From positions 16,953,354 to 17,017,353 of the forward strand of contig OU744449.1 in NCBI GenBank assembly GCA_916610825.1: a DNA stretch of 64,000 nt. The letters run 5' to 3'. Below, one piece after another: positions 4,563 to 58,358 of the stretch. Both the position numbers and the translations under genes were made by a program. The number at the start of each line of letters is the position of its first letter. The first letter of the stretch is position 1. Source of the stretch: Haliclystus octoradiatus. Its lineage: Eukaryota > Cnidaria > Staurozoa > Stauromedusae > Haliclystidae. Under the pieces are notes generated by a model. That model was not told where the DNA came from. It worked only from the letters and a program-made list of their open reading frames with translations, and did no database searches.

Positions 4563-7500
4563 GTAAGTACTGAAAGCCTTGTGATTCATGTAATAATGGA
4601 TCAATCATATTTAGCATCTAATTGATACTGTATTATTGCTAATTAATAATTGTAGAAAGTATCCAATGATTGATTTGCAAGAAGCATATTAACTCCCATC
4701 TTGAGATTTCAAGTCTATTCAAAGGGAGACAAATGGGTCTGTAATTTACTCAGATCCTCCTGATAAGTTTACAGTAACTTTTTTTCACATGACTGACTAA
4801 CATAATAAAGTAAAGAATACACATAAAATTTCTGATTACAATGACAAAGATGTATATATATATTTATAAAGTAATTGTATGGGCAAAACGTCAATTTGAG
4901 TACTCAATGCTAATAGCAGAGCAATATAGAAAGTAGATCAAAGATCACAAGTTTACTCCGTTACTCTGAGTTTCACGTAAAGACGCTCTTCAGACGGTTA
5001 AAAACAACATTATGGTGTGCTCAAGTATAGACATGCGTTTCTATTGTTTATTATTACATTCTATTGTATTTTTATGCTATTGTTAAATATCTACGTGTTA
5101 TTCTTACAGTTTCTTAAATAATATTTGTTTTCGTGTCGGCATTTGGAAATGAGTTCCGTTCTTTTATTTAATAAATTCTATGTTTATAATAAATTATTTG
5201 GAATTTCTCCGTTAGACATAGATTACATTTTTTAGTTTTATTACTGTAGGCAGCCGCTGTGGCTAGTATTGACCATTTTATTTTGTAATTAGTATATTTT
5301 TCTTTGAGTTCCCAAATGTGTTTGGACAATTCTATGCTGTTTGCATATTTTTTGTTGTTGTGAAGGACATCTTATGTTAGGCTGCACGCTGCTTGAAAGT
5401 GCCTTCAGTTAATCCGATGTAGTTTTGGCCTATGCTGTCCTGTGCCGTGGCCTTGTAAACGAGACTTGAGGATAGGCATTTGTTGTCCAATGGGCAATTG
5501 TCTTTGTTGCGGCAGTTGCAAGTCTTGGTTTAGTGCTGTTATTGTCACTTAGGACTTTATTGTTATGGCTTCTAATTATAGTTTGGACTTTGGCCATGCA
5601 GCTGTAAGATACCTTAACATTATTTCTATTAAAATTCTTGTGGAGTCTATGGGCTTTCGGAAGGTGTTTGTCAATCATCTCTAAGAATTTCTTTGCAATG
5701 TTAGCGTCCACATTTTGGCTGAATGGCGGGTTAAACCACATTATATTCCTTCTTCTGTTTCTGTTAATGGTTTCTGTTCTGTTGTTGAACGGCTGCGTTG
5801 CTTATAGGTAAACTCTGGCTTATATTCACTGGATTCCAATTCAGATACATATGGACCTTTACAATTTTCGAAGACATCCTGATTGATGGATAGATCGGAG
5901 ATTCTTTGAGTTACGGCTATTGGTATCTGCTTGATAATGATCTGGGGATGATTAGATTCTGCGTTAATGTAGATCGGATCGCTGCTTGGCTTTCTGTAGG
6001 GCCATCATAAATCAAGTGCCCATTGGACCATAAATTTCTATCCTCAAGTCTTGTTTACAAGGCCAACCTCACAATGCCACAGGACAGCATAGGCCAAAAC
6101 TACATCAGATTAACTGAAGGCATTTTCAAGCAGTGTGCAACCTAACATAAGATGTCCTTCAAAGCAAAAAGTATGCAAACAGCACAGAATTGTCCAAACA
6201 CATTTGGAAACTCAAAGAAAAACATACTAATTACAAAATAAAATGATTAATATTACCCACAGTGGCTGCCTATAGTAATAAAACTAAAAAATGTAATCTA
6301 TGTCTAATATTATAATTTATTATAAACGTGACATTTTATTAAATAAAAGAACAGAACTCTTTTCCAAGTGCCGACACGAAAACAAATATTATTTAAGAAA
6401 CTATAAGAATAACATTTGGATGTTTAGCAATAGCATAAAACATACAATAGAATGTAGTTAAGCAATAGAAACGCTTCCTTAAGTCATGTATATACTTGAG
6501 CACACCATAATGTTTTTCATTCAATAAACGGTCTGAAGAGCGTCTTTATGCGAAGCTCAGAGTAGCAGAGTAAACTCGTGATCTTTGACCTACTATTTAT
6601 ATGTATATTATACTTTAAATGCTTTATTCTTACTCAGAACATTGATGATGACCCTCAAAGATTTAAGTTGGCCAGTTGTTGCTGTTATAAATGAAGGATT
6701 GAATACTCAAATGAAGAAAGACAAGCCTCAAGATTTGAAACAAGATATTGACCTGGTTAAATTGCTATGTGAGCTGTATCTTTTCATTCACATTTTTTTT
6801 TACCGCCTCTTGTGCTTTGTCAAAACTGAAAGTGTCTTAGGCAGCTGAATTTAACTAATAGAATCTATCAAGCAAATAACGATGCACTGAATGATTAAGA
6901 TGTGTGAAGTCTAACAAAATACTTATTGACGTAGCTGAATAAAAACATTTTACATAAGTATCAATCATTGAAGATTACATGTATTGAAAATGAATTCAAG
7001 TCAACAGACAAACGCATTGATATATATTCTTGAATGTCTTCTTAAAACAGTCTTGGTTCAAAATGTATAGTTCACAAATAAATATCGATAAAAATAACGT
7101 ATGATTAGAGTGTTACGATGAACAAATAGTTCACATTCTCCGTGAACTATTTGGTTTAGAACATAACCAGCTCTGATTTGTGACTGCTTGGGACGCTTTT
7201 TAAGAGCATTTGTTGATCTTACAAACCCTGATCAATTATGTAATTCTTCTATATTGATGACATCATCAAAGCTAGGGCGAGAGTTGCTTGGCACGTTGGG
7301 TTTCAATTTTCAAAGCTGCGAGGTAAGCCATTTGAATTTATGGTTTCATAGGGCTTTGTCCTGGTTTTTTTTACCGCTATGATGTTGTGAGATAGTTTCA
7401 TAGGTGTTAACCAATCAGATTGCAAGAATTATTCGTAGCAAAACCTTGTTATGTTCTAATGGTAGTCAAGCTATTAGTGTCACAACATACATACAAAGTT

Positions 7501-10500
7501 ACAAACAACCATAAACATTTTAAATATAGCAAGCTCCATCATTTATGAAAAACTATCATGTTAATATTATATACATTATTACTATTATTATATTATTATC
7601 TGACTACCAATATGAAACCATTCAATAATAATTCTAATAACGACTCAAATACGTCTGTTGCTATGTATGGCATCAGATTAATCTGAAATTTTTATCATAT
7701 TCTCAAGCTGTGTATCCATTTACCTTAACATGGATCCAGAGAATCAAAGATGGAGCTTTGCGGAATCTCAGTGCCATCATTTATCCTTGAGAATCTTATG
7801 GCCCCATTTAAGGAGAGGTTCTTTTATCATTTTTATGGAGACAAAGCAACTAACTCAATTGATAAAGTAAATGTTGTATTATCACATATTATTGTTTTAA
7901 TGCGATAAACATGTTTACTTGCATATTCATAGAATTAAATATCCTCATCCTTTCAATTACCGGTATGTATTATTTGCTTGGTTGAAATCAAATCATCCAA
8001 AGCCATTGAACTGGTCCTTGTGATAATTAATTCTTATATTATCGGTATTAACTGTAACAAAATGTAGGCTATCTGCACCTTCATAACTTTTAACATTAAC
8101 TCTACTTTATTCCATGTGGTCTAAAGCCCTGGGAAAACGACCGCAACATTTGCGTGACAAATCTGTGTTTTGTCTGACGTTTGTTTTTCGCGTTTTGAAG
8201 CAGTTATTTCAAGAGCGGCTAAACGGACAAAATTATTTCAAAAATTATCTACAACAACTCAGACTGAGTTGTTCAAATGGAAGCCATGGAGAAGCCACAG
8301 CATCGAAAGAGTTCAATACATTTATTTCGAACGAAATGGTTCAAGTAGGATAACAAAGACGTTCGATAAAAAATTCCTTGGAAAATGTTAATAAAATACA
8401 CCATCCAACATATCAGACAAAATCGAAAGAATGGCTAAAGGACAAGCGAATCGCACAACGATTGATGGAATTAAAAATATTGTGAAAATTTTGTTCACGT
8501 TTGCCCAGGGTTTAAGGGACTACGCTTAACATCATATGAGACTTAGATAACTAAATGTTTATGAACTTAGAAAACATTTATATACAAACACATGCAAAGG
8601 TTACACAGCTACCAATTCAGCATTGCAACCAATTACGTATCCGTATCTCCTCTGCACCATATTTATTCAATCTTGCTACAATGCTCTAATAATTATAGGT
8701 ACAGAGCAGTTTGAATCAAAATAAACAAGCCTGCTTCAACTCATGCTAAAATGTGTGCTACTGATTCACTGTCAAATCTCAGTATGTGAACAGACTCAAT
8801 GTCTATCAAAGTAGTAACCTTTTTCAGAATTAAGAAGTAGCCTATAGTCGGTTTAGAAATGTAAAAGCAAATTGACTAATAACTCTGGATAGTAATGTAG
8901 AGCAGTGCTTTAATACAAATTAATGCGGTCTGTAAACTGTAACCTGGTGTCTGTAAACTGCATACATGTGTTTGTGCGTACGTTTCACAGAAACTTTCAT
9001 AAATGTTCGCATTTCCAGAAAGGAGGTTGGAGCAGTGCAATAGTTACCCCACCCATCGTCACGCGTAGCGCTAAAGGAGGCCGAGATTGGCAACAATTTT
9101 GGCTTCCACTAAATTGGATTACACTGCATTATAAACGGTTTTTATTTCAACAGCCTGAATGGTTTCTGTCTCAAACTGTCAGATGGATGCATGATCATGT
9201 TTCTGTAATTGAAAAAGTTCTCAGCCGCTTCCTTCCCTCAAATGACCAAAGTAAAGTGAAGATATCTGAAGTGCAGGTAAGAGGTTCTTTGTTTTTCTGT
9301 GTAAAATTAATCCAATTACTCTAAAGAAACTTACTGCAAGGTTGGAACATTCAATAAAAAAAACATAACAAGGTTTTGTTGTGATTCATTCTTGCAATCT
9401 GATTGCTTAACGCAAATGACGCTAAACCCCCATATACTAGCCTGCGTCCAGACTAAAATGTTTCTTAAAGGAAAGTGGAAAGTCTGCGTAGCCGACCAAG
9501 CAAAGCCATTTGCTGACACTTCACTAGACTTGCAATCACAGTGAAGCAATCCTATTGGTTGGCTTTGCTCACGTGATTTTGATTCAATGTCAACCACTCA
9601 GATTGTCTGTATCAACCATGTGATAAACAAAATTGGGGTCACACTTCGGAAGGATTTGGAAGGCAATCTGGTTTGCTGAAAATATACAACATATTTGTGA
9701 ATGAGTTAAATTTATTTTAAAATCAAGTAATGTTAAAATTATAGTTCAGTGATGAAAAATTCAAAGCCAGCCAGCTATTGACAACTCATGTTTTATTTTC
9801 ACATGGATTTTCACATGATCAATCCTTTTCGGACGTACAGAGCACTTCGAACATCTGGTAAGCGATTAGGAATGTCACTTCAAAAAGTCAGAATTCAAAT
9901 TTACAAATATGGGAATTACATAACAGTGGTATTTTATAACATTTCATTTCATTTCATATATTTGCAAAAAAAAAAAAACATAAATGGTAATTTTTTGTAC
10001 AGGCAAGCAAAGGGAAATTATATAGTAATATAATTTGCACTGATGTGCAGCCTAATGAGAGTGCTTCAAATAGCAATCTAAATCAATCTTATGTAATTTT
10101 GAATTAAAGGTTATTAAGGAGGAAGAAGTCACTACTTCATCCGGTAACTGATTCCATAATGGAATTATGCGATAAAAAAAGGAATAAAAAATTGAATTAT
10201 TTACAGGTATTGAACGTGCAACGAATTGCATAGAATGTCCTCTAAGTTTACTTATGTTTCGTTTTATAAAAATGTTATCAGGAAAGTCAATTAGATTATT
10301 TATAATTTTGTACACCATGCATAAATCAAATTTAATTCTACGGATTTCTAAAGATTCAATTTCAAACAGGGCCAAACGACTGTGATAACCATTATCTTTT
10401 AATCTTGCTCTAGAACACACATATTTAGTAAAACGTCTTTGAGTTGATTCAATCAAATCAATGTCTTTTTGTAAATAAGGACTCCATAGTTGGGTGTCTT

Positions 10501-13500
10501 TTTCTAATAGAGGTCGTACATAGGTAGTATAGGCTTTAATAAGTAATAAGGAATTGTGCATTGCGTGAGGTAAAGCATTTCAGTAGAAGGTAAGATCTTG
10601 TTTTAGCTTTAGCGGAGATAGAAGAACAATGAGTAGAAAATTTAAGATCTGAAGTAATGATGAGGCCAAGGTCACAAAGTTTTCCTGTTTGCTTCAGTTT
10701 GTTACTCCCGAGGAAATAATCAAGCTCACTTGCGTTGGATGTACCAAAGGATATTGTACTACATTTATCATAAGCAATTCTCAGTTGCCAGCTTTCGGCC
10801 CATGTTGCAAATTTATCTAACGATGTTGTGAGTGCATTGACAGGGGAAGAATCATTTCGAGCGACAAAAAATTTTGCATCGTCTGCAAACAGACGCACTT
10901 CGCACAAACCATCCAAACAGCTCTCAATATCATTAACATAAAGTAAAAAGAGTAGCGGTCCTAACACAGAACCCTGTGGGACACCACTGGAAACTGGGAG
11001 AGAACTTGAGATTTCATCAGATACAATGACGCTTTGCGAACGACCAGAAAGAAAGGATTTAATCCATTCAAAAAGTTCGTATTTGATGCCGTAAGATTCT
11101 AATTTGGCTAAGAGTTTTGAATGTGTAACAGTGTCAAATGCTTTAGCAAAGTCTATATATACAACATCGACACGTGAGCGTTTGTTAATTGAATCATACC
11201 AATCATTTAAAGTCTTTAACAGTTGACTACAAGTAGAACGCTTTCTGAGAAAGCCATACTGTCGATCAGATAAAATATTGTTTTCATTTAAATAAACTAG
11301 TAGGTCATCTACAATGATACGTTCCATAACTTTGCAACAGATGCAGGTTAACGATATGGGTCGATAATTACTACGGGAAGCTACGTCACCTTTCTTAAAA
11401 ATTGGCGAAACTAATGCTTGTTTCCAGATATCAGGTAGGATGCCGGTTTTTAATGACAATTCAAATAACATAGATAAAGGAATAGTAAGTTCAGAGGCTA
11501 TTGCTTTGAAAAATATTGGTGGGTAGTCATCTGGTGTTCGAGATACTTTTGTGGGCAAGGAAGATAATGTCTTGTAAACTTTTTCGAAAGAGAACTCTAT
11601 GAATTCCAATGAAGTATTTTCGTTAGCCGAGTCTGGAATGTTAGGTATGCTGTTATTGTCCTGTGTAAAAACACTAGCAAAATATTCATTGATAAGAGTT
11701 GCTTTCTCTTTGTCATCTGTAGTAACAGAAAGATCATTTTTGACAATAGCAGGAATTGTAGAGTTAGATTGTGTTTTACCTTTAACGAAGGCGTAACATT
11801 TTTTTAATGAGGGGTCAACTAGTAGCGAGACTTCGTAATCATGATGAAACTTTTTACTGCCTTTTCATAATCTTTGCATGTATCTTTATACAATTTCTTT
11901 TTACACGGAGATTCTTTAGACGATTTGTACAAGGACTTCTTTTTGCAACGGAGTAATCGAATGTTTTTAGGATAATTGGGTTTACGATTAGAATTATGTT
12001 TATATAACGGTACATATTTTGAAGTAGATAAGTTGAGAATATCGCAAATTTTATTCCAAAAAGTTTGAACATCATTTTGACTTTCCTGTAACATATCAAT
12101 CCAATTTATGGTAGACAAGTAAGAATTAATAGAATCATAATCTGCTTTATAAAAATTTCGACGTTTAGTAGGTTTTGATTTAGGGAAGCGGTCATTACTA
12201 TAGTTGCTGACAGCTAGGTTAAATTCAATAGACTGATGATCACAAGTAGACGTGAATGGTTCGGTGACTTCAGTGCAAAAAATAGCATTGTCTTGGGAAC
12301 AAAAAACAAGGTCAAGAATTTCATCATTTCTGGTAGGCGAGTTAACAAATTGATTGAGTCCATTTCGAACAATACCGTCTAAAAACATTGTAGTATTTGA
12401 AGATCCATGATATTTAGGAATTGACCAGTCAATACAAGGAAAATTAAAGTCGCCAATAACAACAACTGGAAAAGCACTATCAGTGCTAACAAAGTCAATA
12501 AATAAACACAGTAAATTCACTTCAGTGGAAGACAAAGCCGACGAAGGAGGGTTGTACAAACAAACTAAACGATATCCGATATTTGATATGTGTATATCAG
12601 CCACAACATATTCAAGAGTGTGAAAAGTAGACGGGATATCAACAGTAGTAACTTTCAAATCTTTGCGTATTAAATTGCAACACCACCCCCAACAGTTGAT
12701 GTAATTCTGTCTTTTCTAAGTACTTGATAATCACGTTGGGTGATTAGCGAGTCAGGCACACAACATTTCAACCATGTCTCTGTTATAGCAATGACATCAT
12801 AACGATTAGATGAAAGTAGACAATCAAAAAGATCCAATTTGTTCATTAATGAGCGTGCATTAAAATAATAAAACTTTAAAAAACAATTATCTTTGCTTGC
12901 CTGTGACCATTATTGTGGAATTTGATCAATGTTTTCCGCAAATACGTTTTCTTCTCGATTAACTACTCTGGCGTTTTGTTTAGCGATGGTCCAATTTGAG
13001 ACATCGCCTCTTTGTTTGATTACATAACGCTCACCAGGGGCAGCGTTTGAAATTTTTTTTTTTTAAATCATTATACAAAGGTTGCAAAATTTGTCTTTCG
13101 TTAAATGTCAAGCACTGACGAATGTGAACACCAGGAAAATTTTCTGAGTCTTTCAGTTTACTGGCAGATCTCAAAATAACATCTCTATCATTTTGGGATA
13201 CCAACTGGATTTTAATTAATTGAGGCTTGTTAGTTGCACCCTTCTCGGTGGGTGGTTTACCAACTCTGGTAATTCCAGCTATTTGAACATTGGAACCACA
13301 AACAAACGACACAATCTGATTAACTTTTTGTTTGTCAAACTCCTGAGATATAAAGGGGACTCCAGCCATTATTAACATCAAGATAAAAAGGACCAATTCC
13401 TTCTTCAGGTTAGACAGTATACTATACAAACCATAATATACTAATATTATATACCAACCATAATATAATATATAATATACCATTTCTACTCAATTTTCCC

Positions 13501-16500: not shown

Positions 16501-19500
16501 ATCATCAACCAAAAGTAAAATGTTGGAGACTTTATCGCCATTGATTTTTTCCATTCTTCAAAGTTTATATCACAGTCATTAAAGGCGTCTGATAATTTAT
16601 AGGCAGTAAAGAGAAGTTTATGCAGAGCTACAACAGTAGTTTCGTGAGCAAAACGTGTTTTTGCGATATGTGCAACTTTAATAAAGGAATCAGCTGTACC
16701 AGAGGATGTACATGTGGATTCAATTAAAGCTGATGTCCACCCACTTCCATCTAACAACTTTCCAATGAGATGCACAAAACTTGCTCGATATGTAAAGCAC
16801 CAAGAATAATAAAAAGTCGACTTTCGTCATAAACTGTTATTGTATTATTCCATTGAAAAAGTTTGGAACTTGCATAAAGTGGTTGATCTACAGCCATAAC
16901 TGGAATCTGATTTTCATTTAGATATTGAGTCGATTTTATAATGATATCCATACCATGTTTTATCATGGCAATTGATTTCGAATCTTCAAAGAACAAAGGT
17001 AAAAGAGAAACTATTGATTTATTAATAATAGTGTCTTGAGTTCGATCAGCATGATATGAAGACCAGGTTACATCAAGTTTATTGTTATCTTCTTCATAAA
17101 TTTGAGCGTGCTCACACCAGCTCTTTTCCATCAACCACTCTTTTTCAAGACTACTTAGAGGTGCATCTAACCACTTTTTGCACAACAATGGCATAGGTGG
17201 AGTTCTAGTTTTGAGAATAGCAGATGGAACAATCGTATAAGAGCTTGGCATTGATGCTGATTTTTGTATTCTTGAAAAGGATGTATCAGTATTCAACACT
17301 ACAGGTCGTTTCTTTGCAGGGTGTTCACACCTTGGTTTTTGAAACAATGATATGCTAGTACCATGAAACGAATTTTTCGAAGTTGTACTCGTTGGATTAT
17401 AATCTATGTTGTCATATGCAGATACAGTAAATTCATCAAGCCATAAAGTTGATGGGCAGACGACACCTTCCAATTCAAATTGGTTTATAGCTGAAGTACA
17501 TAATGAGTTGGAGATTTGTAGAACTCGTGTATATGAAATTGAAAGTCCATAGGAATGTAATTTTTCAACAAGATCCTTGTCTCTATGCCTGCTATGGATT
17601 AGCATACCTATAAATACAGGAAATGGTGTTTCTCTCTTTCTCAAGGTTCGTACTTTGTTGGTCTTCTTTTTTTTGTGTGGCAGTTAAATACAATTAATTG
17701 AGCAATTGCCAAAGCTGCTTCATCAACATTGCTATCGATAACATCTAGGTTAGCAGAAGTACCTGAAACAATCATACTAATCAGCGCTAACAGTGAAGAA
17801 GGAACTGACTTCAACTGACAGTTTTTATCAAAAGTTCCATCAAATTCCTTTGAAGCCTGTACATTTATGTCATCTCTGACTCGTTTTGCTACAGCTCTAA
17901 GCTTGAGGCCCTCATCGTAATTGTTATTTTCGTAGAGCTGCCTGATAAGGCTAGATACAATTTCATTGCTCGTGAGAAGATATTCTCTTTGAGACTTTTC
18001 AAAAGAAAATCCTTCCAAATGTTCCAATAATCGTCCTCGGAAACGGGTTGTGTGGACATAGGGGACATAGGGAATGTCAAACAGAGATAATAAATCAGAG
18101 AGTCTCGTTTGATACATCTGGTGTAATTTTGGCATTGAGAAAACAACTTCTCCGGTAGAATGTAGAACAGATTCTTCGATATGGTCAATAACTTCTGCAA
18201 ACACAATGCCTTCACATGTACTTACAATATATTTGTCACTGTTCTCTTCACGGCGTAGGCTGCAGGATTTATTGTATATATTTACTAAACAAATTTTATG
18301 ATATTTTGATTCCATTGCTACCATGTCCCCGGTATCTAATTTAGTCAAAAGAGCAGTGTCATTAAGCTTTTCTGCTCAAACTAATAGACGTTGCCCAAGT
18401 TCTTTTGTGCGTGCATGTACTAGGTCTCCAAGATCTTCAGAAGAAGGGCATTCACAGAAAATACAAACGTGTAAAAGGGACTTCCAACCCTTACCTCCGC
18501 GGTGGGACTTCCTTCTTGGCTGATCAGATGGTGAATCATCAGTTGCTAAACATCGTTTGGTTGCTCTTTCTAGCTCTTTTGAGTTGAATTTATTGTAGCA
18601 ATTTCTGTGCCATTTTGCCTCTTTGGTCATAAGAAAGTTATCAAGATTATCATTGTCGACAATGTCATATGTACTTAACCAATTTGGAAATGCATTCAAC
18701 TCTCCAAAACCTTTCAAGTTTATTGCTAGTGCAATGTATCCTTTATGAACAGTTTCATTCGTAGCTAAAGGCTTACGAGCTGGACAAATTAGTTTCAGTT
18801 TAGTGGAAATGTTTTGGCATAACAGACATTAAAATCTATGTCTGTATCATTGATATTGTAATATATTATTTGGCTTTTGGTGCTTGGTTGATGGGACGGC
18901 TGGCGGTTGACCATAACCAGGGCTAGGCTACCGTAGACAGCAGACCTGTCACCACCAAAACCAAGCACCCGTCACACTGCTATGTCAGTGGAATACCTAA
19001 TATACTTACCTAACCATGTCGAGAGAGAGAGGAGGGAGGGTGTGGAGAAAAACTGATCAGTTGCAATATCGGTTAGCCTCATTGCAGTATAGCAATTTCC
19101 TCAAGTGCAGTATAGGACGAAATCCGTAATGTGCAGTGTAGCACATACTAATATATGATGATGAATCTGTGTAGTGTAACACATACTCCGTACTGTGCAG
19201 TATAGCACATACTATACAAGTGCAGTATAGCACAATACTCAAAAAGTGCAGTATAGCACATAAAATAAAGTGATGACAATGTGCAGTTTAGCATCGGCAT
19301 ACCTTGATGTCACAAGGATGCCACATTGCATTTGAATGAGACAATTAGAAAATGTTATTGCACATGTAGCACATGATAGTATGTAGTAGAGTGATATGCC
19401 CGGAATTCGCAAAAGCAAGATCTTCACGATTCTCAAAGAGGTAGCAACATGAAAATTCAAGAGCTTCTCAAAAGCAACTAGCAAGCTAGATCACGATGGC

Positions 19501-42952: not shown

Positions 42953-45045
42953 TGCATATCTCTAGCATGAAAAATTACAGCATCACTAAAAAAAATATGT
43001 CCTTTATCATATCATATCATATCATATACCACCTCTGAATCGTATTGATGGATCAGTAGCTTGCAGTGGCGCTGATATTGCCGAAACATTAAATGCGCAA
43101 TTCAAATCTGTTTTTATTACTGCATGACAACAACCAGCCGCTTCATGTTACAAAGCCAGTGGAGGCTGATCTAGAATATATACAAATTACTCCCACTAAA
43201 ATTATGCATCAAGTTAAACATTTAAAACCAAACCTTTCTTCTGGGATTGACGTGATCTCTTACGCATTTATCAAAACGTTTGCTGATCAGCTAAATGTTA
43301 TCCATTATACGTATTGCTCAATTGTTCCCTGAAGACATCCTGAAGATAAGACTTACCAACATATCAAAATCGTCAAAGTAAAAGTGAGACTTGGGCAAGT
43401 CAAACATCATCCCTCTTTCAAAGACATCATTGCCATCTAGTAATCGAGCGTCGTATCGACCGATTAGTCTAACATCGTGCGTATGTCGGCTGATGGGGCG
43501 ATTACTTAAAGACGATTTAGTTAATCATTTTAAAAATGGTGGTTTCATCAGTATAAATCAGCACGGTTTTACATGCCTCAGATCAGTTGGATGCAGCTGG
43601 TGTCAAGGGTCATCCTTTTAATTGGATGAAGTGTTTTATGACTGAAAGATTACAAAGAACGACGGTAAATGGTGTGTCCTCTGATTGGTCCAAAGTTGAG
43701 CAGGTTTGCCCCAAGTGTCAGTACTGGGACCTATTTTATTTTTGCTCTACATCAATGATTTGATATATGTCGTCAAAGAATGCAACATCAAACTATTTGC
43801 TGATGATTGTAAAATCTATTTCCAAACAAATTCTGTTAATGACCATCAAAGATTACAAGATGACCTGAATAGAATAATGTGCTAGGCAGACAAAAGTCAA
43901 TTGACTATTGCTATACACAAATGTAAAATACTACATCTAGGTTCAACGAATCAGCATAAGCCTTATTTTATCAATAATACTAGATTAGAATCTGTTTCTG
44001 AAATAAAAGACCTGGGAGTATTAATGACATCCGCACTAGATTTTCACCCTCATATATCGTCGATTGCTAGAAAGGCTGGAATTAGAGCAAAGATGGTACA
44101 TCATGTTTTCCGTTCCCGTGATTTCAATTTTCAAAAACAGATGTTTATAACCTGTGTACGCCCTATTCTCGAGTATCGATCACAAATTTGGTCACCATTT
44201 CGTTCTAAAGATATCGACTAGAGAGGCTATACAGCGCCAATCTACGAAACGTATCATATTTTACTTAAACTCGGATTTAGAATTACCTTATCATGAACGC
44301 CTAGTAAATTTAAATCTCGATAGCTTACAAAAGAGACGTTTACATTTTGATTTAATTCTCTACTTTAAATTTATTAATAACTTGGTAGAAACTGATGACA
44401 ATTCAATATTTCAAATTTCCAGTCATGTCAGATAACTAATGCCTACCTCACATCTAGATGTGTATCGTAACTCATTTGTGTTACGTTGCATACATATTTA
44501 TAACACCAATTACCTCTAAACATTCGCTCCTCTAAATCTGTACATACTTTTATATCTAAATTAAGTTCTGAAAAGTTACCAAAATATCTTAGATACAGCT
44601 AATTTATAATGTAACTGTATTATTATGTACTACTATTTTAAATGTTGTATATAAACCAACCATTGTTGTTTTACAGAAATGAAAAATATTATTATTATAG
44701 CTGATTGCACAATTTGTTTGAGGACAACCGATTTCTTTCAAATAACTGTCCTTTTGGTTTACTCTGAGAGACGATCATTGAGCATCGCCAAACAACGTTG
44801 TGTAGATCAAAATGGTTTTGTTGCTTTGAAATGTAGTTGGGGTTGAGGCTTCGACAGACATTATTTCTACTTTATCAGGTTCCATTTCAAACTTTGACCC
44901 AAAGCTTGCCATGGGCAGAAACAGCGTGTTTCAAAAAGTATCAGTAGTAAACATAAGCAGATAAAAACAAACAGCAATAGAATATAATGCAAGAATAAGC
45001 GAAGTCGATTGTAAACCACGTTTGCCGTATAATGTGTCCATCATA
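42953..45045 (-). pseudogene. Fucosyltransferase pseudogene, N-terminal part, split by a LINE
   Basis: 44697-45045 and 42953-43010 match, in order, the first ~135 codons of the intact fucosyltransferase (59733 down to ~59330), including the start region (GTGTCCATCAT), the membrane anchor and the GCATATCTCTAGCATG segment. Between them, at the base equivalent to ~59383, a LINE fragment (43011-44696) is inserted. Small indels shift the frame. Homology ends at 42953, so only the N-terminal portion was duplicated or survives. Confidence 0.88.
43011..44696 (+). mobile_element. CR1-like LINE fragment inside the fucosyltransferase pseudogene
   Basis: + strand frames: KIMHQVKHLKPNLSSGIDVI, then SYRPISLTSCVCRLMGRLLK, VLGPILFLLYINDL, IKLFADDCKIYF (FADD), EIKDLGVLMTSALDFHPHIS, CVRPILEYRSQIWSPF and LPYHERLVNLNLDSLQKRR. 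At least four frameshifts or stops. It resembles the LINE at 9937-13663 (same C-terminal pattern RPLLE..QLWSP) but is a separate, older copy. The left border is an (ATCAT)n run, the right border an (ATT)n tail. Confidence 0.87.
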
Positions 45046-45817
45046 AATAATTACTATTTACCCCCATTTATTCTGTGAGAAAATTGCCAAAGACTAATGC
45101 CACATTGGATAGTCCCTATCAATCACAGCGGAATTCTATCATCTAAAATACTAGATCTTGATCTGCCAAATCACCTACATCAATCAGCTACCCTATAATA
45201 CGTATGTCCCATGTACTACTGTATTGCATCTCCAAGGCCCGTATAACCTGGGGGAGTACTTCAATATGGGCATGTGCCATTTTTATGGGTACCATTTTGG
45301 CACCTTGCTGACAATGTTGGGTATCAATTTTGGAATCTTGCTGCGAAATTTCCAATTTCCAGCTGTGAAACCGGGATATAGCCTGCTGTGAAGTGCCCGG
45401 ACCCCTACTGAGAGACGCCAAAATGGCATTTGTAATGCAAAATTCAAAATGTGAGGAAATAATCCATTTTTGCCAATTTTGGGGTAACATTTCCAGCAAA
45501 ACCTGCAATTTTGGGGTGCTAGCAGGATTTTCGATATGACTCACCCCGTACGGTTTTGCGAGTTAAAAGTGAAACTGTTCAAGTTGAATATTTACCGAAG
45601 GTCGAATTGTTTGGCAGTTTACAAAGCGGTTGTTCAGGGATAAATCGCATCTCCATGCTAAATATTAAAACGTTAGAGCTTTGTCGACTCCATATACAGA
45701 CCTTATTTATTATTTTAAAATTATAAATGGCTATGTAGATCTTGATAGAAATTTAATTAAATTGTATCCCGACTAATATTATATATATATATTGTAAAAA
45801 TAATAAAATTTATGTTT
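45046..45817. other. No gene supported
   Basis: A 118-codon frame on the - strand (45188-45544) is open but has no domain. The DNA there repeats CCAATTTTGG and CAAAATGGC words, more like a decayed repeat. Confidence 0.45.
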
Positions 45818-45915
45818 ATCTAATAGCAGATAATATAGGGCTCTATGTCTTCATTTGACAGAGCGGTAAATAATAATAATATATGGCGAAAGAGTCAAAG
45901 AATACACATTCTTTA

Positions 45916-45958
45916 CTGTTACTCAAGTTTCACGCTTTTCACAGCGATCTTCAGACAG
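45916..45958 (-). ncRNA. Hammerhead-ribozyme motif
   Basis: Mirror image of 46003-46045, identical in sequence on the - strand. Confidence 0.75.
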
Positions 45959-46002
45959 ATTTTTTACTCAAAAAGATTTTTGAGATTGATTGAGTAAAAA
46001 AT

Positions 46003-46045
46003 CTGTCTGAAGATCGCTGTGAAAAGCGTGAAACTTGAGTAACAG
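46003..46045 (+). ncRNA. Hammerhead-ribozyme motif
   Basis: CTGT, CTGAAGA core (46007-46013), stem II CGCT/AGCG closed by GTGAAA and flanked by a U-U pair, GAA (46030-46032), helix III ACT-TG-AGT, A at the cleavage site (46041), then ACAG pairing with CTGT. Compared with the 4958 motif, stem I changed on both sides (CCGT/ACGG to CTGT/ACAG), which supports the fold. Confidence 0.78.
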
Positions 46046-46093
46046 TAAAGAATGTGTATTCTTTGACTCTTTCGCCATATATTATTATTATTG

Positions 46094-46926
46094 TAAAAAT
46101 ATATATATCTTTATATTGTAAATGACTGAATAATTCATTGCGAAGAGATAGAAGAAATAGGTTGATTTGCCCGAAAATTGATGGAAAACGTCTTCGAGTC
46201 ATAATCATTCGGTGGGCCCGCTGATTTCGCCTAATCTACGTATCACAAGACTTCGTTTCAACCTTTCCTTAATTGTATTCCCGAGCAGGATAATTAAGAA
46301 CGCATCGCTTAAATGGCTTGATTGAACCATGATTGAACATCTAGCTCAAATGCAATTTATGCTCTGTTATTGATTGTGTTGTCATCTAGACCAGTCCAAA
46401 AAGAACATATAAAACTGTAGTTTATGCAGTTTGGATCGTCTGTGCATTTCCCGGGTGCATTGTAATAGCTTAATGATCGAATGAGTTCACACCGGGCACA
46501 CCTATAATGTAGATCCCGGGGGTACATCCACTGCTAAACAGTTGTGTTACATCAATTCATTATCATTAAGTTAACATTCGTATCCTCAGAACTCATCCAA
46601 TGTAAAAGAATCCAGCCAAGGCAGCATAAATCATCGTTATCTTTTATTTAAAGAGAGTTTTCATAAAAAAATATGGAATACAAAAAATAACAGCTACAAA
46701 TTAATTAACTATAGAATAAAGCTAATAAAACTATTTGACGAAAGCTATTAACGTCTGTTCCTATATATATATATATATATCTATTTGAAATAACGTTTAA
46801 GTATAATATTCTTTGAAACTCAACTAATTGAGCGTTACACATATTGTATGCTGTCCATTGCCGTCCGTTACATTGCTGAATGTGTAATTATTTGTTTTCC
46901 CACTGCCAGTATCTTATCCATGATAA
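46094..46926. other. No gene supported; short (AT)n at 46764-46780
   Basis: No domain or long repeat recognised. Confidence 0.5.
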
Positions 46927-50189: not shown

Positions 50190-51712
50190 AACCCGGAGAG
50201 TTTGCGGTTTTGCAAACATTAATTATGTGGACGATTAAATAAATTAGACTTAGAATCGCTAGAAGTTCGGCATATTAAAGCTGATCCTTCCCTTATTTAC
50301 AAAATTGTACATGGTATTGCGGATGTTCCATTTGATCAATTGTTTAAAATTGAATCTTCAAAATATTCCTTGAGGTCACATTCATTAACATTAAAATCAA
50401 TATTTCTTGCTAAAACAGACTGTGTTCGATACCAGTTTTGTTGTAGAGTAATACCTTAGTGGAATTCTCTATCAGAAAAACTTGTAACCTCATCCCGTTT
50501 TTCTGCCTTTAAAGTGTATATCCCGGATATTGGGAGATTGCTTCTTTAGATAGAGAAAAATTTTCTATCAGTACATGTTCTTCTTGTATTTTTACTTTGC
50601 GCAAGCATTTCCCCCTCAAAAATGCAATCAAAGTTACGATTTTGTGTCTCACTCTTTTTCCTCGAACAGGAACCCACTTATTTTCCACAAGAGGGTTTAC
50701 ACCGGAAAAAACACTAAACTTTTTACTTATTTGTCTCTAAATAAAAAACCGCTAAACCAAATGACAATCTGCTTTCGGAATGAAATTTTCAACGTTCAGC
50801 TGAAGATTTAGAGCTACATTTGATCAATATTCAAGATCCAGGTAAAGAGATATAAGCATCTAAAGTCGAAAGTTTTTAGTTTTGGATTTTTCTCACTCAA
50901 GTGCTCACACAATTAGCACCTCTTTACGACTTCGTCTAAGGAGGTTATCGCTGCTGGTTATTGAAGGTGTGTGACTATTTTTAATACGCATCAACTATGC
51001 CAACTATGCTTGGACGAAGTCGCAAAGAGGTGTTAATAGTGTGAGCACTTGAGTGAGAAAAATCCAAAACTAAAAACTTTTGACTTTAGAGGCTTATATC
51101 TCTTTACCTGGATCTTGAATATTGATCAAATATAGCTCTAAATCTTCAGCTGAACTTTGAAAATTTCATTCCGAAAGCAGATTGTCATTTGAATTAGCGG
51201 TTATTTATTTAGAGACAAATAAGTAAAAAGTTTGGTGTTTTTTCCGGTGTAATCTCTCTTGTTGAAAATAAACGGGTTCCTGTTCGAGGAAAAAGAGTGA
51301 GACACAAAATTAATCCAAAATCGTCAGTTTGACAGCATTTTTGAAGTAGAAATGATCGCGCAAAGTAAAAACACAAGAAGATTATGTATGAATAGAATAT
51401 TTTTCTCTATCTAAAGCAGCAATCTCCCAACATCCGGGATATACACTTTAAAAGGGGTCTTGGTGAGACAAGCCTCTCATCTTTTTGCAAGGTATTTTCG
51501 TAATTTACGGCATTTAGTAATTATAAAACAATGTAATGTAAAACAAGCAATAATTTTGCATGCAAAAATTTATATTAGTTTTTATTAATTAACATCAGTT
51601 GTAAGCCTTGTAACTAGGTTACATTTTAGTGAGAGATCATATTATGTGACTCTCCCTTGTTTTGCCTGTCAATTTTGACAAAATAAAATGAAATGAAATG
51701 AAATTTCTTCGA
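50190..51712 (+). mobile_element. LINE 3' fragment (RT C-terminus and GAAAT tail) carrying a MITE
   Basis: The + strand reads RLNKLDLESLEVRHIKAD-like sequence, IYKIVHGIADVPFDQLF, LRSHSLTLKS and CCRVIP.WNSLSEKLVTSS up to 50512. It resumes after 51451 and ends in GAAAT repeats at ~51690-51710. Its C-terminus and tail resemble the 9937-13663 LINE. A TTAA-type MITE (50513-51447) interrupts it. Confidence 0.82.
50513..51447. mobile_element. TTAA-flanked palindromic MITE (full-length, 935 bp)
   Basis: Both ends read AGTGTATATCCCGGATATTG inward, and TTAA flanks both sides (50509-50512 and 51448-51451). The two ~440-bp halves are near-perfect reverse complements around a centre at ~50940-51020. TTAA duplication suggests mobilisation by a piggyBac- or Kolobok-type transposase supplied elsewhere; none is encoded here. 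Confidence 0.9.
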
Positions 51713-51985
51713 TATCCAATTGGATCCAGAAAATGTTACGATGTTTGGAACATTCTTTAATACTTCAAATAAATGGTTCAACTATCAGAGACCACAATAG
51801 GCAACCGTTATATCAGATCTTACTGTGTCCTAGTTTTGTAAATGTATAAAAAGCGTTATCTTCAAAACATTTGTTGTTATTGTGACACCTTATGGCTATA
51901 TATGGACACAAATTATTAGTCAACGTATAAGGCACAACATTACTATACGATTCTATACATAATACATTAATGTCTGAACGTTTAA

Positions 51986-52545
51986 AGTGTATATCCCGGA
52001 TATTGGGAGATTGCTTCTTTAGATAGAGAAAAATTTTCTATCAGTACATGTTCCTCTTGTATTTTTACTTTGCGCAAGCATTCCCCCCTCAAAAATGCAA
52101 TCAAAGTTACGTTTTTGTGTCTCACTCTTTTTCCTCGAACAGGAACCCGTTTATTTTCAACAAGAGAGATTACACCGGAAAAAACACTAAACTTTTTACT
52201 TATTTGTCTCTAAATAAATAACCGCTAATTCAAATGACAATCTGCTTTCGGAATGAAATTTTCAAAGTTCAGCTGAAGATTTAGAGCTATATTTGATCAA
52301 TATTCAAGATCCAGGTAAAGAGATATAAGCCTCTAAAGTCAAAAGTTTTTAGTTTTGGATTTTTCTCACTCAAGTGCTTACACGATTAACACCTCTTTGC
52401 GACTTCGTCTAAGCATAGTCGGCATAGTTGATGCGTATTAAAAATAGTAACACACCTTCAATACCCAGCAGCGATAACCTACTTAGACGAAGTCGTAAAG
52501 AGGTGTTAATCGCGTGAGCACTTTAGTGAGAAAAATCCAAAATTT
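51986..52545. mobile_element. TTAA-type palindromic MITE, right half lost
   Basis: Begins after TTAA (51982-51985) with the same AGTGTATATCCCGG terminus, follows the 50513 element through its centre (TTGATGCGTATTAAAAATAG), and stops at ~52545 within the second arm. Confidence 0.85.
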
Positions 52546-52922: not shown

Positions 52923-53215
52923 TGATGAGAACTGTAGAATTATGTTGAAGAAATAATAATAACAACGTAGGTTGAATTGATTTGTATGGTATGTTTCTTC
53001 TTATGAATAATAATATTAATTCCAAGTTGACATGTTGATAGTAGACTGTACATTCAGTTCTCATAGTTTTCATAGTTTTCATTTACTGTATTTATAGTGT
53101 TTAGATAAATGCTAGAAGCTGCTAGATCATGCATGGTCATTGTGAGTCGTGCGGGGAGTCATGTAGGTTCTCCTATGTTCTAGAATGTTCTAGATGGTTC
53201 AGGAAGGTTCCTACA
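52923..53215 (+). repeat. 5' LTR of element A
   Basis: TG..CA borders. Followed by TAACTCCCCCCGCCAGATGG, where a primer-binding site would lie; I could not assign a tRNA. Confidence 0.9.
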
Positions 53216-53579
53216 TAACTCCCCCCGCCAGATGGCGGAGCCATAAATAAAAATGCATGATATAGGCTAAAAATGAGAAAGATTAATGCTTTAATATATG
53301 CTAAATTGTAAATAATAAATGTATGTAAATATAAATGTAAGTAATTATGGTATAGTAGAAGCTATTAATGAAGGTTTTAGATATGCTTATAGACTAATTG
53401 CATAACAGTTAATGAGAAAATTCATTACAATTTTGGTGCATACCAATTTGTTTAATTGCTTTGGATTTCCAGAAAAATAAATTTTCATACAAGTGTTATA
53501 TTTGGTTTAATTTCAGTTTCTTCTATGAGCTTGGTAATATCTTCAATATTTCTTTTATAGTCATATTTTTTGCTTGTGA

Positions 53580-53800
53580 GTTTGATGAATTCAGTATTTT
53601 CTTGAGTTGTTGCTTATTCTTGTGTGCTTGATAGTTGTTGCTTATTCTTGTGTGTTTGATGAATTCAGTATTTTCTTGAGTTGTTGCTTATTCTTGTGTG
53701 CTTGATTAATTCAGTATTTTCTTGAGTTGTTGCTTATTCTTGTGTGTTTGATGAATTCAGTATTTTCATGAGTTGTTGCTTATTCTTGTGTGTTCAATTT
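53580..53800 (+). repeat. Tandem ~49-bp repeat in element A
   Basis: Four to five copies of a unit with TTCAGTATTTTCTTGAG and TTGTTGCTTATTCTTGTGTG. The counterpart is at 61550-61790 in element B. Confidence 0.85.
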
Positions 53801-54384
53801 TAAACTCTGTTGTGTGTTCTTGTGTGTTTCTTAGTTCATTTAGTATTCTTAGTGTGTTCATTGTGTTTCAATGTTCTTAGTTGAATGTTGAATGTTTCAA
53901 TATTTAAAAGTTTTATGATGTTGGAATGTCCAATGTTTAGTGTTCAATATTTAAAAGTTCCAAAATATTGGAATGTTCAATGGTTTATGTTAAGTATTTT
54001 AAAATCTTACTTTTTTAGTTCAGTCTCTTCAGTTTTGGGTAATCTAATTCCTTGTGTTCAGTTCCGTTTCTTGTGTTTATTTCCATTTCTCGTGTGTAGT
54101 TCCATAGTTCCACTCTTGTGTTTAGTTCCATTTCATGTGTTTTCTGCGTGTTTTGATTAGTTACGTAAAATGCCATTGTTCCTCAGTGTGAAAATCAATC
54201 TAGTTATATTGTTTTGATTCCGCGGTCGTAAATAAAATGTTGTGTTCAATTCCATGTTGTAATAAAATACTTTCAGATTTTAAATTATGTTGTAAAGTCT
54301 TGAAGATTATTCATAATTAGTTGTTTTTGTAATTCGACGGACCAATTGATGAGTTGTTCTTATAATTCGACGGACCAATTGATG

Positions 54385-56377
54385 TGTCATATATTTGCAT
54401 CTCATTTCGAGATAAAACTTTTTATGGGATATACATGGTTATTACAAATTGAAATTGAATTAATAATATTTTAAATAATTAAATGATAAGATAAGAGGTT
54501 GGTATATTTGTTTCATATAGTATAGTATATATATAAATATGTGCAGAAAACAGTACAGATAAACATAAGTACTATTATATAAATATGTATATATATTTAT
54601 TTATTTATTTATTTATATATATTTTATAATTATTATTATTTTTTTTTTTTTTGGTATTATCCCAATTGTTATGATTATTGTTCTCGCTATTGTTATTATC
54701 GTTACTATTGTCAAGTAGAACATAAAGATTTGATACTTAATTATTATAGGTAATATGTTATTATTATTATTATTATTATTTTTTTTTTGTTTCTTTTATA
54801 AAGCTTCTCTGTTTTTGATGTATTTTGTAGATGAAAGAATTGCTGGACATTTCATGATGTGATAGAGATCACTTGCATTTCCATTGCACTCTTGACAGTA
54901 GCAGCTTTTTTTAGGCTTATGGAAGATTTTATTAGTGCATATTTCATAATGAAAGCCGTGAACGGACAATCTAGCAATGTAACTTCGGTTGCTTTGGTTG
55001 CATGCCTGCCAACTTAGAGTTTTTAGAATAGGTGCGTTTATATAATCACCTGATAGCAGCGTATATACTTTTTGATTGCGTGCTTTGCTATATAATTCAA
55101 TAGTATTTGTTTCGAAAGGGTATTGACTCTTGATGTCTTCAACAAACGAAGGTGTATTACAGAAAATAAACATCAATGTGTTTGATGAATTTGTGTGGAC
55201 ACCAAGAGTACGTTTCAAATATGCTGCTTTTATTCTATCAAGATAGACAAGCTGATTTAATTTTAAAAATGGAGCTATGACTTCGAAGGCGTAAGTAATA
55301 ACAGGAGAAACTTTCATATAGAAAACCATTGAAGCTGTAGTCAATGACACTCTTGGGAGGCTTTGCAAGGCACCAATAGTTACCATAGACTTGTTAAATT
55401 TATTTGATATATGATGTGTGAATGTCAATGTTTGTTGTAAGCATACACCAAGGTAATCATATGACTTGACAAATTCCACGATTTCATTTCCATAAATAAG
55501 GATATCCGTTTTCTTGAGTGCACCTCCTTTTCTAAACTTTACTATTTTGCTTTTCTTGAGGTTTACAAACAGCTGGTTTTCATTACACCAATTAAATAAA
55601 ACATTGAGTCCGCTCTGTAAGGCGTCTTTACTAGAGGAATACAATACTAAATCATCAGCATAAAATAAAAATTTGAGATCTGTACAAGAGGTTCTCAACT
55701 GCGTAGCAAGATCAGCAATAAATAAAATAAACAATGTTGGAGAAAGGCAATCTCCTTGGACAACTCCATGATTTTGCTCAATTGATTTTGAATAATTGAG
55801 ACCATCGTCAATAGAAATATGATTATCTTATAATAATGCAGAAATTAAACGTAAAATCAAACCATTCACACCAAAATCTTGTTTCAATTTTGTGATCAAC
55901 TTAAAACGGTTGACATTGTCAAAAGCTTTCGTAAAGTCTATAAAGCAAGAGTACATGTGCCGCTTCCCTTTGGATTGGGAAAATTGGTTAAAAATATCAT
56001 TTATTAAAATATTTAAAGGTTGCATAGTACCTTTGTTCTCTTGAAAGCCAAATTGTTCAGGTGGAACTAAGTGAAATATATTGTCTTTAAAACGACGATT
56101 AAGAAGTGTAGTAAGTACTTTGAGAGGACAGCATAAAAGAGATATACCACGATAATTATTTGGATCTATTTTTAGACCTTTACCTTTATACAGAAGCTTA
56201 ACTATGCTGCAACACCAGCGCTGTGGGATCTTACCAAGATTCAAACATAAATTAAAAAACATGGTCCACAATGGAAGTAGTTGTTCAATTGAAAACTTCA
56301 AATGTTCATTTGTAATGTTATCTAATCCAGTAGCTTTATGATCTGAAGTTGACAAAATCGCATCAAGGACTTCTTCC
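54385..56377 (-). mobile_element. 5'-truncated LINE inserted in LTR element A
   Basis: CGACGGACCAATTGATG occurs on both sides (54368-54384 and 56378-56394), consistent with a 17-bp target duplication, although the same word is tandemly repeated in this part of the LTR element. The 5' end lies within the RT domain. The A/T-rich 3' UTR includes (TTTA)n, (ATT)n and T-runs at 54590-54790. Confidence 0.8.
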
Positions 56378-56388: not shown

Positions 56389-56389
56389 T

Positions 56390-56682
56390 TGATGAGAACT
56401 GTAGAATTATGTTGAAGAAATAATAATAACAACGTAGGTTGAATTGATTTGTATGGTATATTTCTTCTTATGAATAATAATATTAATTCCAAGTTGACAT
56501 GTTGATAGTAGACTGTACATTCAGTTCTCATAGTTTTCATAGTTTTCATTTACTGTATTTATAGTGTTTAGATAAATGCTAGAAGCTGCTAGATCATGCA
56601 TGGTCATTGTGAGTCGTGCGGGGAGTCGTGTAGGTTCTCCTATGTTCTAGAATGTTCTAGATGGTTCAGGAAGGTTCCTACA
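56390..56682 (+). repeat. 3' LTR of element A
   Basis: Near-identical to 52923-53215; only one or two substitutions are evident. Confidence 0.9.
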
Positions 56683-56686
56683 TACA

Positions 56687-57966: not shown

Positions 57967-58113
57967 GGTTAGATATCTTTATTAATATAATTATTATATT
58001 ATGTGGATTTACTATTAACAATTTGTATATAGATAGTTTCTCCCATATCTGGCCATACAATTCTCTTTAACTCCCCAGAATTCTGAATTCTGAAAATTTA
58101 TCATATACTTTAT
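57967..58113 (-). pseudogene. Fucosyltransferase 3'-end duplicate
   Basis: Matches 58459-58588 (last ~30 codons, stop and 3' UTR of the intact gene), sharing ATACAATTCTCTTTAACTCC and CCAGAATTC. Homology stops where an (AT)n run begins. The palindrome at 58157-58442 sits between the two copies. Confidence 0.85.
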
Positions 58114-58128
58114 GCTATATATATATTG

Positions 58129-58161
<33 letters not shown>

Positions 58162-58240
58162 CTAATAGCAAAAAATAGTGCTCGATATCATTTGACAGAG
58201 CTAAATATAATAAAAGGAGTCAAAGACTACACATTCATAA

Positions 58241-58280
58241 TTGTTACTAATAGTTTCATGCTTACGCAATCATCAGACAA
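58241..58280 (-). ncRNA. Hammerhead-ribozyme motif
   Basis: Mirror of 58319-58358, same bases on the - strand. Confidence 0.75.
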
Positions 58281-58318
58281 ATAAACTAAATTAGTTTTAG
58301 TTTTAGGATTTAGTTTAT

Positions 58319-58358
58319 TTGTCTGATGATTGCGTAAGCATGAAACTATTAGTAACAA
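58319..58358 (+). ncRNA. Hammerhead-ribozyme motif
   Basis: TTGT, canonical CTGATGA core (58323-58329), stem II TGC-GTAA-GCA flanked by a U-U pair, GAA (58342-58344), helix III ACT-ATT-AGT, A at the cleavage site (58354), then ACAA pairing with TTGT. Stem I is again compensatory relative to the other loci. Confidence 0.8.

What the first reader, a model, noticed from the sequence alone, without database searches (positions are those of the whole stretch)
4958..58358. Hammerhead ribozymes at three loci with compensatory stem I changes
Seen: 4958-4997 (-), 46003-46045 (+, with mirror 45916-45958) and 58319-58358 (+, mirror 58241-58280) each keep CUGANGA, a closable stem II, GAA, a 3-4-bp helix III (ACU/AGU) and A at the cleavage site. 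The stem I pairs are CCGU/ACGG, CUGU/ACAG and UUGU/ACAA: both sides change together. Known: hammerheads with very short helix III occur in Penelope-like elements. Inferred: these are functional or recently functional self-cleaving RNAs.
Basis: partly seen in the sequence, partly recalled or inferred. Interest (0 to 1): 0.85.

Follow-up and report, generated by a model that had tools for sequence, protein, structure and literature searches.

The report
Hammerhead ribozymes in Penelope-like retroelements
The window holds six copies of a small RNA-cutting motif, the hammerhead ribozyme, sitting in what look like the end repeats of Penelope-like jumping genes inserted as mirror-image pairs, a setting in which such motifs are already known.

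Summary
In detail: hammerhead motifs lie at 4958-4997(-), 46003-46045(+) with mirror 45916-45958(-), and 58319-58358(+) with mirror 58241-58280(-). A sixth, decayed copy lies at 6529-6568(+). A structural scan finds 5 against a mean of 0.01 in 200 shuffles. Stems covary, more so with a homologue, L001 (probably bivalve host DNA in a symbiont assembly), whose motif Rfam Hammerhead_1 scores at 22.5 bits, E 8e-4, below its gathering score. Rfam recognised none of the window copies.

All copies look like Penelope-like element (PLE) end repeats (pLTRs). The 4.9/6.5-kb pair is two head-to-head, 5'-truncated PLE 3' ends with broken coding. A and B are head-to-head pLTR pairs without coding; A has a 13-bp candidate target-site duplication. 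PLE identity rests on architecture and recalled motifs; Pfam, NCBIfam, PDB and fold searches gave no support.

Self-complementary stem III points to cleavage as dimers. Stem II starts with U.U in A, B and L001, a published tolerated variant. Cleavage is not shown, and is doubtful in cis for A and B, which form 103-140-bp hairpins.

New here: a covarying bulged hairpin 3' of the ribozyme in four of six window arms and in L001. New member of a known kind.

The parts
4958..4997 (-). Hammerhead motif C (stem I CCGU/ACGG, CUGAAGA, stem II GCGU/ACGU, GAA, stem III ACU-CAG-AGU, cleavage after A at 4962)
6529..6568 (+). Hammerhead motif C', decayed (A15.1 changed to G, one stem I mismatch, stem II GCGU/AUGC with G-C at 10.1-11.1); not in the finding
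45916..45958 (-). Hammerhead motif A, left arm (identical to the right-arm copy)
46003..46045 (+). Hammerhead motif A, right arm (stem I CUGU/ACAG, U.U at 10.1-11.1, stem III ACU-UG-AGU, cleavage after A at 46041)
58241..58280 (-). Hammerhead motif B, left arm (identical to the right-arm copy)
58319..58358 (+). Hammerhead motif B, right arm (stem I UUGU/ACAA, U.U at 10.1-11.1, stem III ACU-AUU-AGU, cleavage after A at 58354)
4900..6001 (-). Left copy of pair C: 5'-truncated PLE 3' end (broken linker and putative endonuclease coding 6001-5109), then 3' UTR, hammerhead, 3' hairpin; outer end uncertain
   Evidence: tblastn with the L001 protein E 3.6e-52 over five pieces in three frames; arm alignment 84%
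6013..6602 (+). Right copy of pair C, head to head with the left copy and more strongly 5'-truncated
   Evidence: 4924-5500 against 6013-6602, 84%; tblastn pieces 6181-6306 and 6312-6401, E 1.3e-12
45790..45802 (+). Candidate target-site duplication of insertion A, left copy (TATTGTAAAAATA)
   Evidence: AT-rich, so moderate evidence
46089..46101 (+). Candidate target-site duplication of insertion A, right copy
45803..46088 (.). Insertion A, 286 bp: head-to-head pLTR pair; perfect arms 45869-45971 and 45990-46092 with an 18-nt spacer; left arm longer at its outer end
58152..58447 (.). Insertion B: head-to-head pLTR pair, arms 58152-58291 and 58308-58447 (135 of 140 complementary), 16-nt spacer, in an AT repeat
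45840..45864 (-). Conserved bulged hairpin 3' of hammerhead A, left arm
58180..58201 (-). Conserved bulged hairpin 3' of hammerhead B, left arm
58398..58419 (+). Conserved bulged hairpin 3' of hammerhead B, right arm
4900..4922 (-). Conserved bulged hairpin 3' of hammerhead C, left arm

Best explanation
The motifs are minimal type I hammerhead ribozymes carried in the terminal repeats (pLTRs) of one family of Penelope-like retroelements in an animal-like genome. In an intact element each pLTR lies between the endonuclease stop codon of one copy and the open frame of the next, as seen in L001. The hammerhead would fold best when two copies of the transcript pair through their self-complementary helix III (dimer), perhaps helped by the element's protein, and cut after H17. 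About 40 nt further 3', a bulged hairpin lies just before the 3' ends of the inserted copies and probably marks where the enzyme starts reverse transcription. The enzyme cuts AT-rich DNA on both strands and copies an RNA from each, or copies one RNA that primes on itself; either leaves two pLTRs head to head with their 3' ends outward. Loci A and B are such insertions reduced to the two pLTRs; the 4.9/6.5-kb pair is one with remnants of coding. Shown here: the motifs, covariation, homology and gene order. Inferred: the PLE name, cleavage, dimerisation, the role of the hairpin and the insertion route.
For: Scan above chance. Covariation on a MAFFT alignment of five distinct motifs (A, B, C, C', L001): 93.2% of 59 cells paired, 9 of 12 pairs with a change on both sides, covariation score 0.817 against 0.302 in shuffles, 0/500; window copies alone 5 of 12 pairs, reached by 1/500. 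C and L001 agree at 11/11 catalytic positions and 7/29 others (core agreement is partly ascertained because L001 was first scanned with a core pattern; the stems were not part of that pattern). Rfam Hammerhead_1 on L001: 22.5 bits, E 8.1e-4. A window-only model finds L001 as its best match outside its own training loci, 17 bits, E 0.025. Coding homology to L001: E 3.6e-52 left arm, 1.3e-12 right arm. Distance from last EN match to hammerhead 112, 128 and 129 nt in C, C' and L001. Helix III plus loop self-complementary at 8/8 or 8/9 positions in five of five motifs. Head-to-head inverted pLTRs with 8-10-bp duplications and an optional 3' tail are described for PLEs (PMC3846280, passages). A PLE enzyme cuts and extends both strands at AT-rich sites, and its hammerhead cleaves only with protein (PMC11167929).
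Against: Rfam gives no hammerhead for any window copy tested, C, A(+), B(+), C'. The PLE proteins were not recognised by Pfam, NCBIfam, PDB sequences, the Pfam GIY-YIG model on that contig or a Foldseek search with a low-confidence model (mean pLDDT 53). Monomer folds compete: B, C, C' and L001 have a minimum-energy fold 4.7-7.9 kcal/mol below the hammerhead (A could not be evaluated because of its 2-nt loop). The double hammerhead beats two monomers only for L001 with its 6-bp stem I (-30.0 against -25.4); for C, B, A, C' it does not (-15.4/-16.4, -8.5/-9.4, -11.8/-19.2, -5.2/-14.8). Transcripts of A and B fold as hairpins of -171 to -204 kcal/mol. Only one outside homologue was found.
Confidence: 0.82

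Rival explanations
1. A and B are miniature inverted-repeat DNA transposons (MITEs) moved by a transposase, and the hammerhead resemblance is inherited sequence without meaning.
For: Near-perfect inverted repeats, no coding, length about 290 bp.
Against: Their arms align with the 3' ends of PLE copies C and C' through hammerhead and beyond. The two arms of A end at different places outside. The candidate duplication is 13 bp. Stems covary. No transposase was sought specifically.
Confidence: 0.07
2. The hammerheads are fossils or structural relics: the family once had self-cleaving RNA, but the present copies, and perhaps the active source elements too, no longer cleave.
For: U.U at the base of stem II in A and B, G.U in C, lost A15.1 in C'; short stem I; unfavourable folding; no Rfam hit in the window. 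In the anole PLE, hammerhead mutants do not change insertion in vitro (PMC11167929).
Against: A has 103/103 identical arms, so its source was recent unless the arms were homogenised, and it keeps 11/11 catalytic positions. U.U at 10.1-11.1 occurs in natural hammerheads and is reported as the best tolerated mispair (PMC3088659, passage); an axolotl motif has it too (PMC7229834, passage).
Confidence: 0.35
3. The main present-day activity of A and B is as double-stranded RNA sources: transcripts fold into long hairpins that feed small-RNA silencing or editing.
For: Full arms fold at about -171 to -204 kcal/mol. Rfam microRNA models match the hairpins below gathering scores, as would be expected of long hairpins in general. 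B starts 39 bp beyond the stop of a fucosyltransferase gene on the same strand as one arm.
Against: No expression data. The stem covariation is that of a hammerhead, not needed for a hairpin.
Confidence: 0.2
4. Chance resemblance.
For: Core is short; Rfam does not report the window copies.
Against: 5 against 0.01 in 200 shuffles; compensatory changes; same place in an independent PLE.
Confidence: 0.01

Closest known systems
Hammerhead ribozymes of Penelope-like elements (Cervera and de la Pena 2014; Lunse et al. 2017; neither paper held, known here from citations and passages in reviews)
   Same: Minimal type I motif with very short helix III in pLTRs, downstream of the endonuclease; helix III palindromic, fitting cleavage as dimers.
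   Different: Host unknown; U.U at the base of stem II in A, B and L001; the motifs here sit in inverted, not tandem, pLTRs.
Poseidon/PAc PLE of Anolis carolinensis (PMC11167929)
   Same: Hammerhead upstream of the point where reverse transcription starts. From the paper's numbers RT starts 85-92 nt after the hammerhead cut (cut at +26, RT at +111 to +118); both arms of B end 87 nt after it.
   Different: In PAc the start codon lies in the hammerhead and RT starts in an AC-rich stem loop; no such start codon was established here, and A ends 104 nt after the cut.
Inverted pLTR insertions of Adineta vaga Penelope (PMC3846280)
   Same: Head-to-head pLTRs, one longer by a tail, short target-site duplications, palindromic junctions.
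   Different: A and B have no body at all; the paper's passages mention solo pLTRs and captured sequences, but I saw no hammerhead in that text (0 occurrences).
Metazoan retrozymes (PMC7229834)
   Same: Small non-coding units with type I hammerheads; one axolotl motif has the same U.U mismatch.
   Different: Retrozymes are direct tandem repeats of about 150-450 bp; A and B are single inverted pairs.

Membership tests
Type I hammerhead ribozyme | Catalytic core CUGANGA ... GAA with A15.1-U16.1 and H17 | tested here: met
   11/11 core positions in A, B, C and L001; C' has 10/11, with G for A15.1; H17 is A in six of six window copies
Type I hammerhead ribozyme | Three helices supported by compensatory change, open at stem I | tested here: met
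   9 of 12 pairs with double changes in five motifs, among them all four stem I pairs, three of four stem II pairs and one of three in stem III
Type I hammerhead ribozyme | First pair of stem II (10.1-11.1) formed | tested here: not met
   Unpaired (U.U) in 3 of 5 distinct motifs, G.U in one, G-C in one. A published natural exception (PMC3088659 passage)
Type I hammerhead ribozyme | Score above Rfam gathering threshold | tested here: not met
   None in the window; L001 22.5 bits against a gathering score of 34
Type I hammerhead ribozyme | Self-cleavage at the predicted site | not testable with these tools
   needs a bench assay
Penelope-like element (EN-containing) | Telomerase-like RT and GIY-YIG endonuclease recognised by profile or fold | tested here: inconclusive
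   No Pfam, NCBIfam or PDB match for L001 or window pieces; Pfam GIY-YIG does not hit the L001 contig; models low-confidence. Naming rests on recalled motifs such as YRDD, FYPSI, WFNPP, YIG and CRH-N-K
Penelope-like element (EN-containing) | Tandem or inverted pLTRs flanking the coding region | tested here: met
   L001: C-terminal frame, hammerhead repeat, N-terminal frame of a second protein in tandem. Window: head-to-head arms
Penelope-like element (EN-containing) | Short target-site duplication, AT-rich target | tested here: inconclusive
   A: 13 bp, with a 12-bp or longer match in 98 of 5000 draws of stretches of 85% AT or more, a null slightly less AT-rich than the real flanks (95% and 92%). 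B lies in an AT repeat; C gave none clear
Metazoan retrozyme | Direct tandem repeats of a small non-coding unit | tested here: not met
   A and B are inverted pairs; no tandem copy was found by self-comparison
MITE / TIR DNA transposon | Symmetric terminal inverted repeats and transposase-type duplication | tested here: not met
   Outer ends of the arms of A differ; 13-bp candidate duplication. B's arms are symmetric

The most novel reading that the evidence does not exclude
A and B belong to a family of palindromic mini-elements, 'foldback retrozymes': two head-to-head ribozyme-bearing pLTRs that spread in trans on a PLE enzyme, defined by the hammerhead at the 5' end and a conserved bulged hairpin near the 3' end that serves as the docking and start site for reverse transcription. 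Supporting hints: both arms start 11-13 nt before the hammerhead with spacers of 16 and 18 nt although the two insertions differ by about 28%, and the hairpin covaries between the window and L001.
Probability: 0.2. Interest if true: 0.65.

Novelty: new member of a known kind. Interest (0 to 1): 0.42.

Why it matters
Hammerheads in Penelope-like elements are known, but what they do in the element's life is described as unknown in the reviews seen (PMC7761336 passages). This window offers a compact test: copies with the ribozyme and a covarying hairpin in fixed order, and insertions whose ends can be compared with the mapped start sites of the one PLE enzyme studied in vitro. If the hairpin is the start site of reverse transcription, it would give PLE annotation a 3'-end marker. 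The shared U.U at the base of stem II in A, B and L001 also shows that covariance models trained on stronger hammerheads may miss this group.

Tried and rejected
Rfam at three depths: no hammerhead in the window; the microRNA-model matches are below gathering scores and are explained by long inverted repeats.

Looking for more PLEs in public contigs: two protein scans of viral contigs and one of genome contigs confirmed none; a degenerate DNA pattern gave 0 in viral contigs and 1 in genome contigs, L001. The L001 genome held no second PLE and no second convincing hammerhead (a second match had E 0.6); 190 relatives of it, G001 included, gave only L001.

Structure prediction: 38 and 53 mean pLDDT; the Foldseek search of the second gave no match at E<=0.001. 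Not used as evidence.

The 146-bp duplication around B (57970-58115, 58457-58585, 79%) was considered as a long target-site duplication and rejected: the arms of B are 96% alike, so the duplication looks older than the insertion, unless the arms were homogenised.

Chance for the hairpin: a loose pattern GCTC-N-GAGY has 15 matches in the window, 5 of them in the pLTRs (two being the opposite strand of the same hairpins). The full bulged descriptor with GCTY/GAG ends has 6 in the window, 4 in pLTRs and 2 elsewhere; letter shuffles of the 150 nt 3' of each ribozyme gave 0, 0, 2, 0, 0 of 1000. The letters were chosen after seeing the alignment. The arms A right and C right lack it. In its pair counts, two of five measures are weak: pairs with double change reached by 33/500 shuffles and pair types by 350/500.
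Full report
Observation. A descriptor scan of both strands finds exactly these five, against a mean of 0.01 (maximum 1) in 200 dinucleotide shuffles. They are three independent loci: A at 46 kb and B at 58 kb each hold the motif twice because they are inverted repeats (103 of 103 and 135 of 140 nt complementary, spacers 18 and 16 nt). Self-comparison revealed a further copy, C', at 6529-6568(+), the mirror partner of C at 4958-4997(-). C' has lost A15.1 and has one stem I mismatch. All six copies have A at the cleavage site.

Covariation. On a plain MAFFT alignment of five distinct motifs (A, B, C, C' and a homologue, below), 93.2% of 59 cells pair and 9 of 12 pairs change on both sides, a covariation score of 0.817 against 0.302 in 500 shuffles, none of which reach it. 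With window copies alone it is 5 of 12 pairs, reached by 1 of 500 shuffles, while the number of pair types is not unusual, 190 of 500. Between C and the homologue 11 of 11 catalytic positions agree and only 7 of 29 others. That core agreement is partly ascertained, since the homologous contig was first scanned with a core pattern; stem pairing was not part of that pattern. A window-only model finds the homologue at 17 bits, E 0.025, ahead of the next non-training match at 13.7 bits.

Homologue. A degenerate pattern for a conserved peptide stretch found one locus in genome contigs, L001, in a record titled as a Solemya elarraichensis gill symbiont. It carries two retroelements and is probably host bivalve DNA; that is inference. 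A frame at 2-1129 is followed by a repeat with a hammerhead at 1250-1293 and then by the N-terminal frame of a second protein. Rfam Hammerhead_1 matches it with 22.5 bits, E 8.1e-4, below the gathering score of 34. Rfam finds no hammerhead in the window: none at gathering, none at E<=5, and none at E<=10 in short stretches around C, A(+), B(+) and C'.

Neighbourhood. With the L001 protein, tblastn finds coding remnants in the left arm of pair C (6001 to 5109, five pieces, E 3.6e-52) and in the right arm (6181 to 6401, two pieces, E 1.3e-12), and nothing else significant in the window. The two copies lie head to head, with 84% identity over 605 columns. The hammerhead lies 112, 128 and 129 nt after the last coding match in C, C' and L001. 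Residue motifs recalled from PLEs (not from a call) mark these as RT and GIY-YIG endonuclease, but no profile confirms it: Pfam, NCBIfam, PDB sequences, the GIY-YIG model on that contig, and predicted structures too weak to use. The arms of A, B, C and C' align from just before the hammerhead outward. A is flanked by a 13-bp repeat at 45790-45802 and 46089-46101; matches of 12 or more occurred in 98 of 5000 draws of AT-rich pairs, a null slightly less AT-rich than the real flanks. B lies in an AT repeat between older duplicated sequence.

How it probably works. Papers seen in part: in the anole PLE the enzyme cuts and extends both strands at AT-rich sites, starts reverse transcription inside the RNA, and its hammerhead cleaves only with protein, while hammerhead mutants do not change insertion in vitro (PMC11167929, parts 1 and 2 of 4 and passages). 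Head-to-head inverted pLTRs, tails and 8-10-bp duplications are typical of Penelope, and self-priming was proposed for them (PMC3846280, passages). Both arms of B end 87 nt after the hammerhead cut and the left arm of A 104 nt after it; the anole figures give 85-92. That is a parallel, not proof. Helix III with its loop is self-complementary at 8 of 8 or 8 of 9 positions in all five motifs, as noted for other dimeric hammerheads (PMC3088659, figure legend passage). Energies favour the double hammerhead over two monomers for L001 only, monomer folds compete in the four motifs evaluated, and A and B as whole transcripts form hairpins of -171 to -204 kcal/mol. So cleavage is plausible for the family, with two transcripts or with protein, and doubtful in cis for A and B.

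The U.U pair. The first pair of stem II is U.U in A, B and L001, G.U in C and G-C in C'. This is a known exception, reported to be the mispair that best supports cleavage (PMC3088659 passage), and one axolotl retrozyme motif has it (PMC7229834 passage). Its presence in an independent PLE makes simple decay a less likely reading.

A second conserved RNA element. A hairpin GCUY-UNN(N)-loop-(N)NNA-NN-GAGY with a two-base bulge starts at nt 52 (A left), 40 (B left and right), 36 (C left) and 44 (L001) after the ribozyme; the arms A right and C right lack it. In five sequences 97.5% of 40 cells pair and 3 of 8 pairs change on both sides; the covariation score is reached by 0 of 500 shuffles, but the count of such pairs by 33 of 500. 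RNAalifold predicts the same structure unaided. The full descriptor occurs six times in the window, four of them in pLTRs. I propose that it is the start or docking site of reverse transcription. I did not meet it in print in searches, but the key PLE hammerhead papers were not held, so this is weak evidence of novelty.

Verdict. The ribozyme motifs are real and belong, with good but not profile-proven support, to Penelope-like elements. That is a known association. The hairpin and the palindromic mini-insertions are the parts worth following.

Noticed in passing
18829-25591 (-): Retroelement with split direct repeats (25268-25591 with 19403-19726, 99.4%; 19725-19855 with 18829-18959, 99.2%), a tyrosine-recombinase-like frame 19945-20988 and an RT 20886-22097: arrangement like Ngaro/PAT (DIRS order; that name is recalled)..
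   Followed up: partly
58486-59733 (-) and 44692-45044: Fucosyltransferase gene (Pfam Glyco_transf_10, E 2.6e-50) and a partial second copy (82%). Insertion B begins 39 bp beyond its stop codon, so one B ribozyme would lie in sense in its 3' UTR region..
   Followed up: partly
52923-54387 and 60903-62397: 1.5-kb direct repeat, 95%, with further 300-bp parts at 56390-56684 and 62423-62715..
   Followed up: no
50508-51452, with parts at 51981-52542 and 39865-40203: Long palindromic repeat family (945 bp, 87% inverted self-match); explains the sub-threshold MIR821 match..
   Followed up: no
10052-12715 (-): Non-LTR retrotransposon frames with Exo_endo_phos_2 and RVT_1 domains..
   Followed up: no
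L001 2810-6568 (-): Second retroelement frame of 1252 aa in the contaminant contig, which supports its being eukaryotic host DNA in a symbiont assembly..
   Followed up: no
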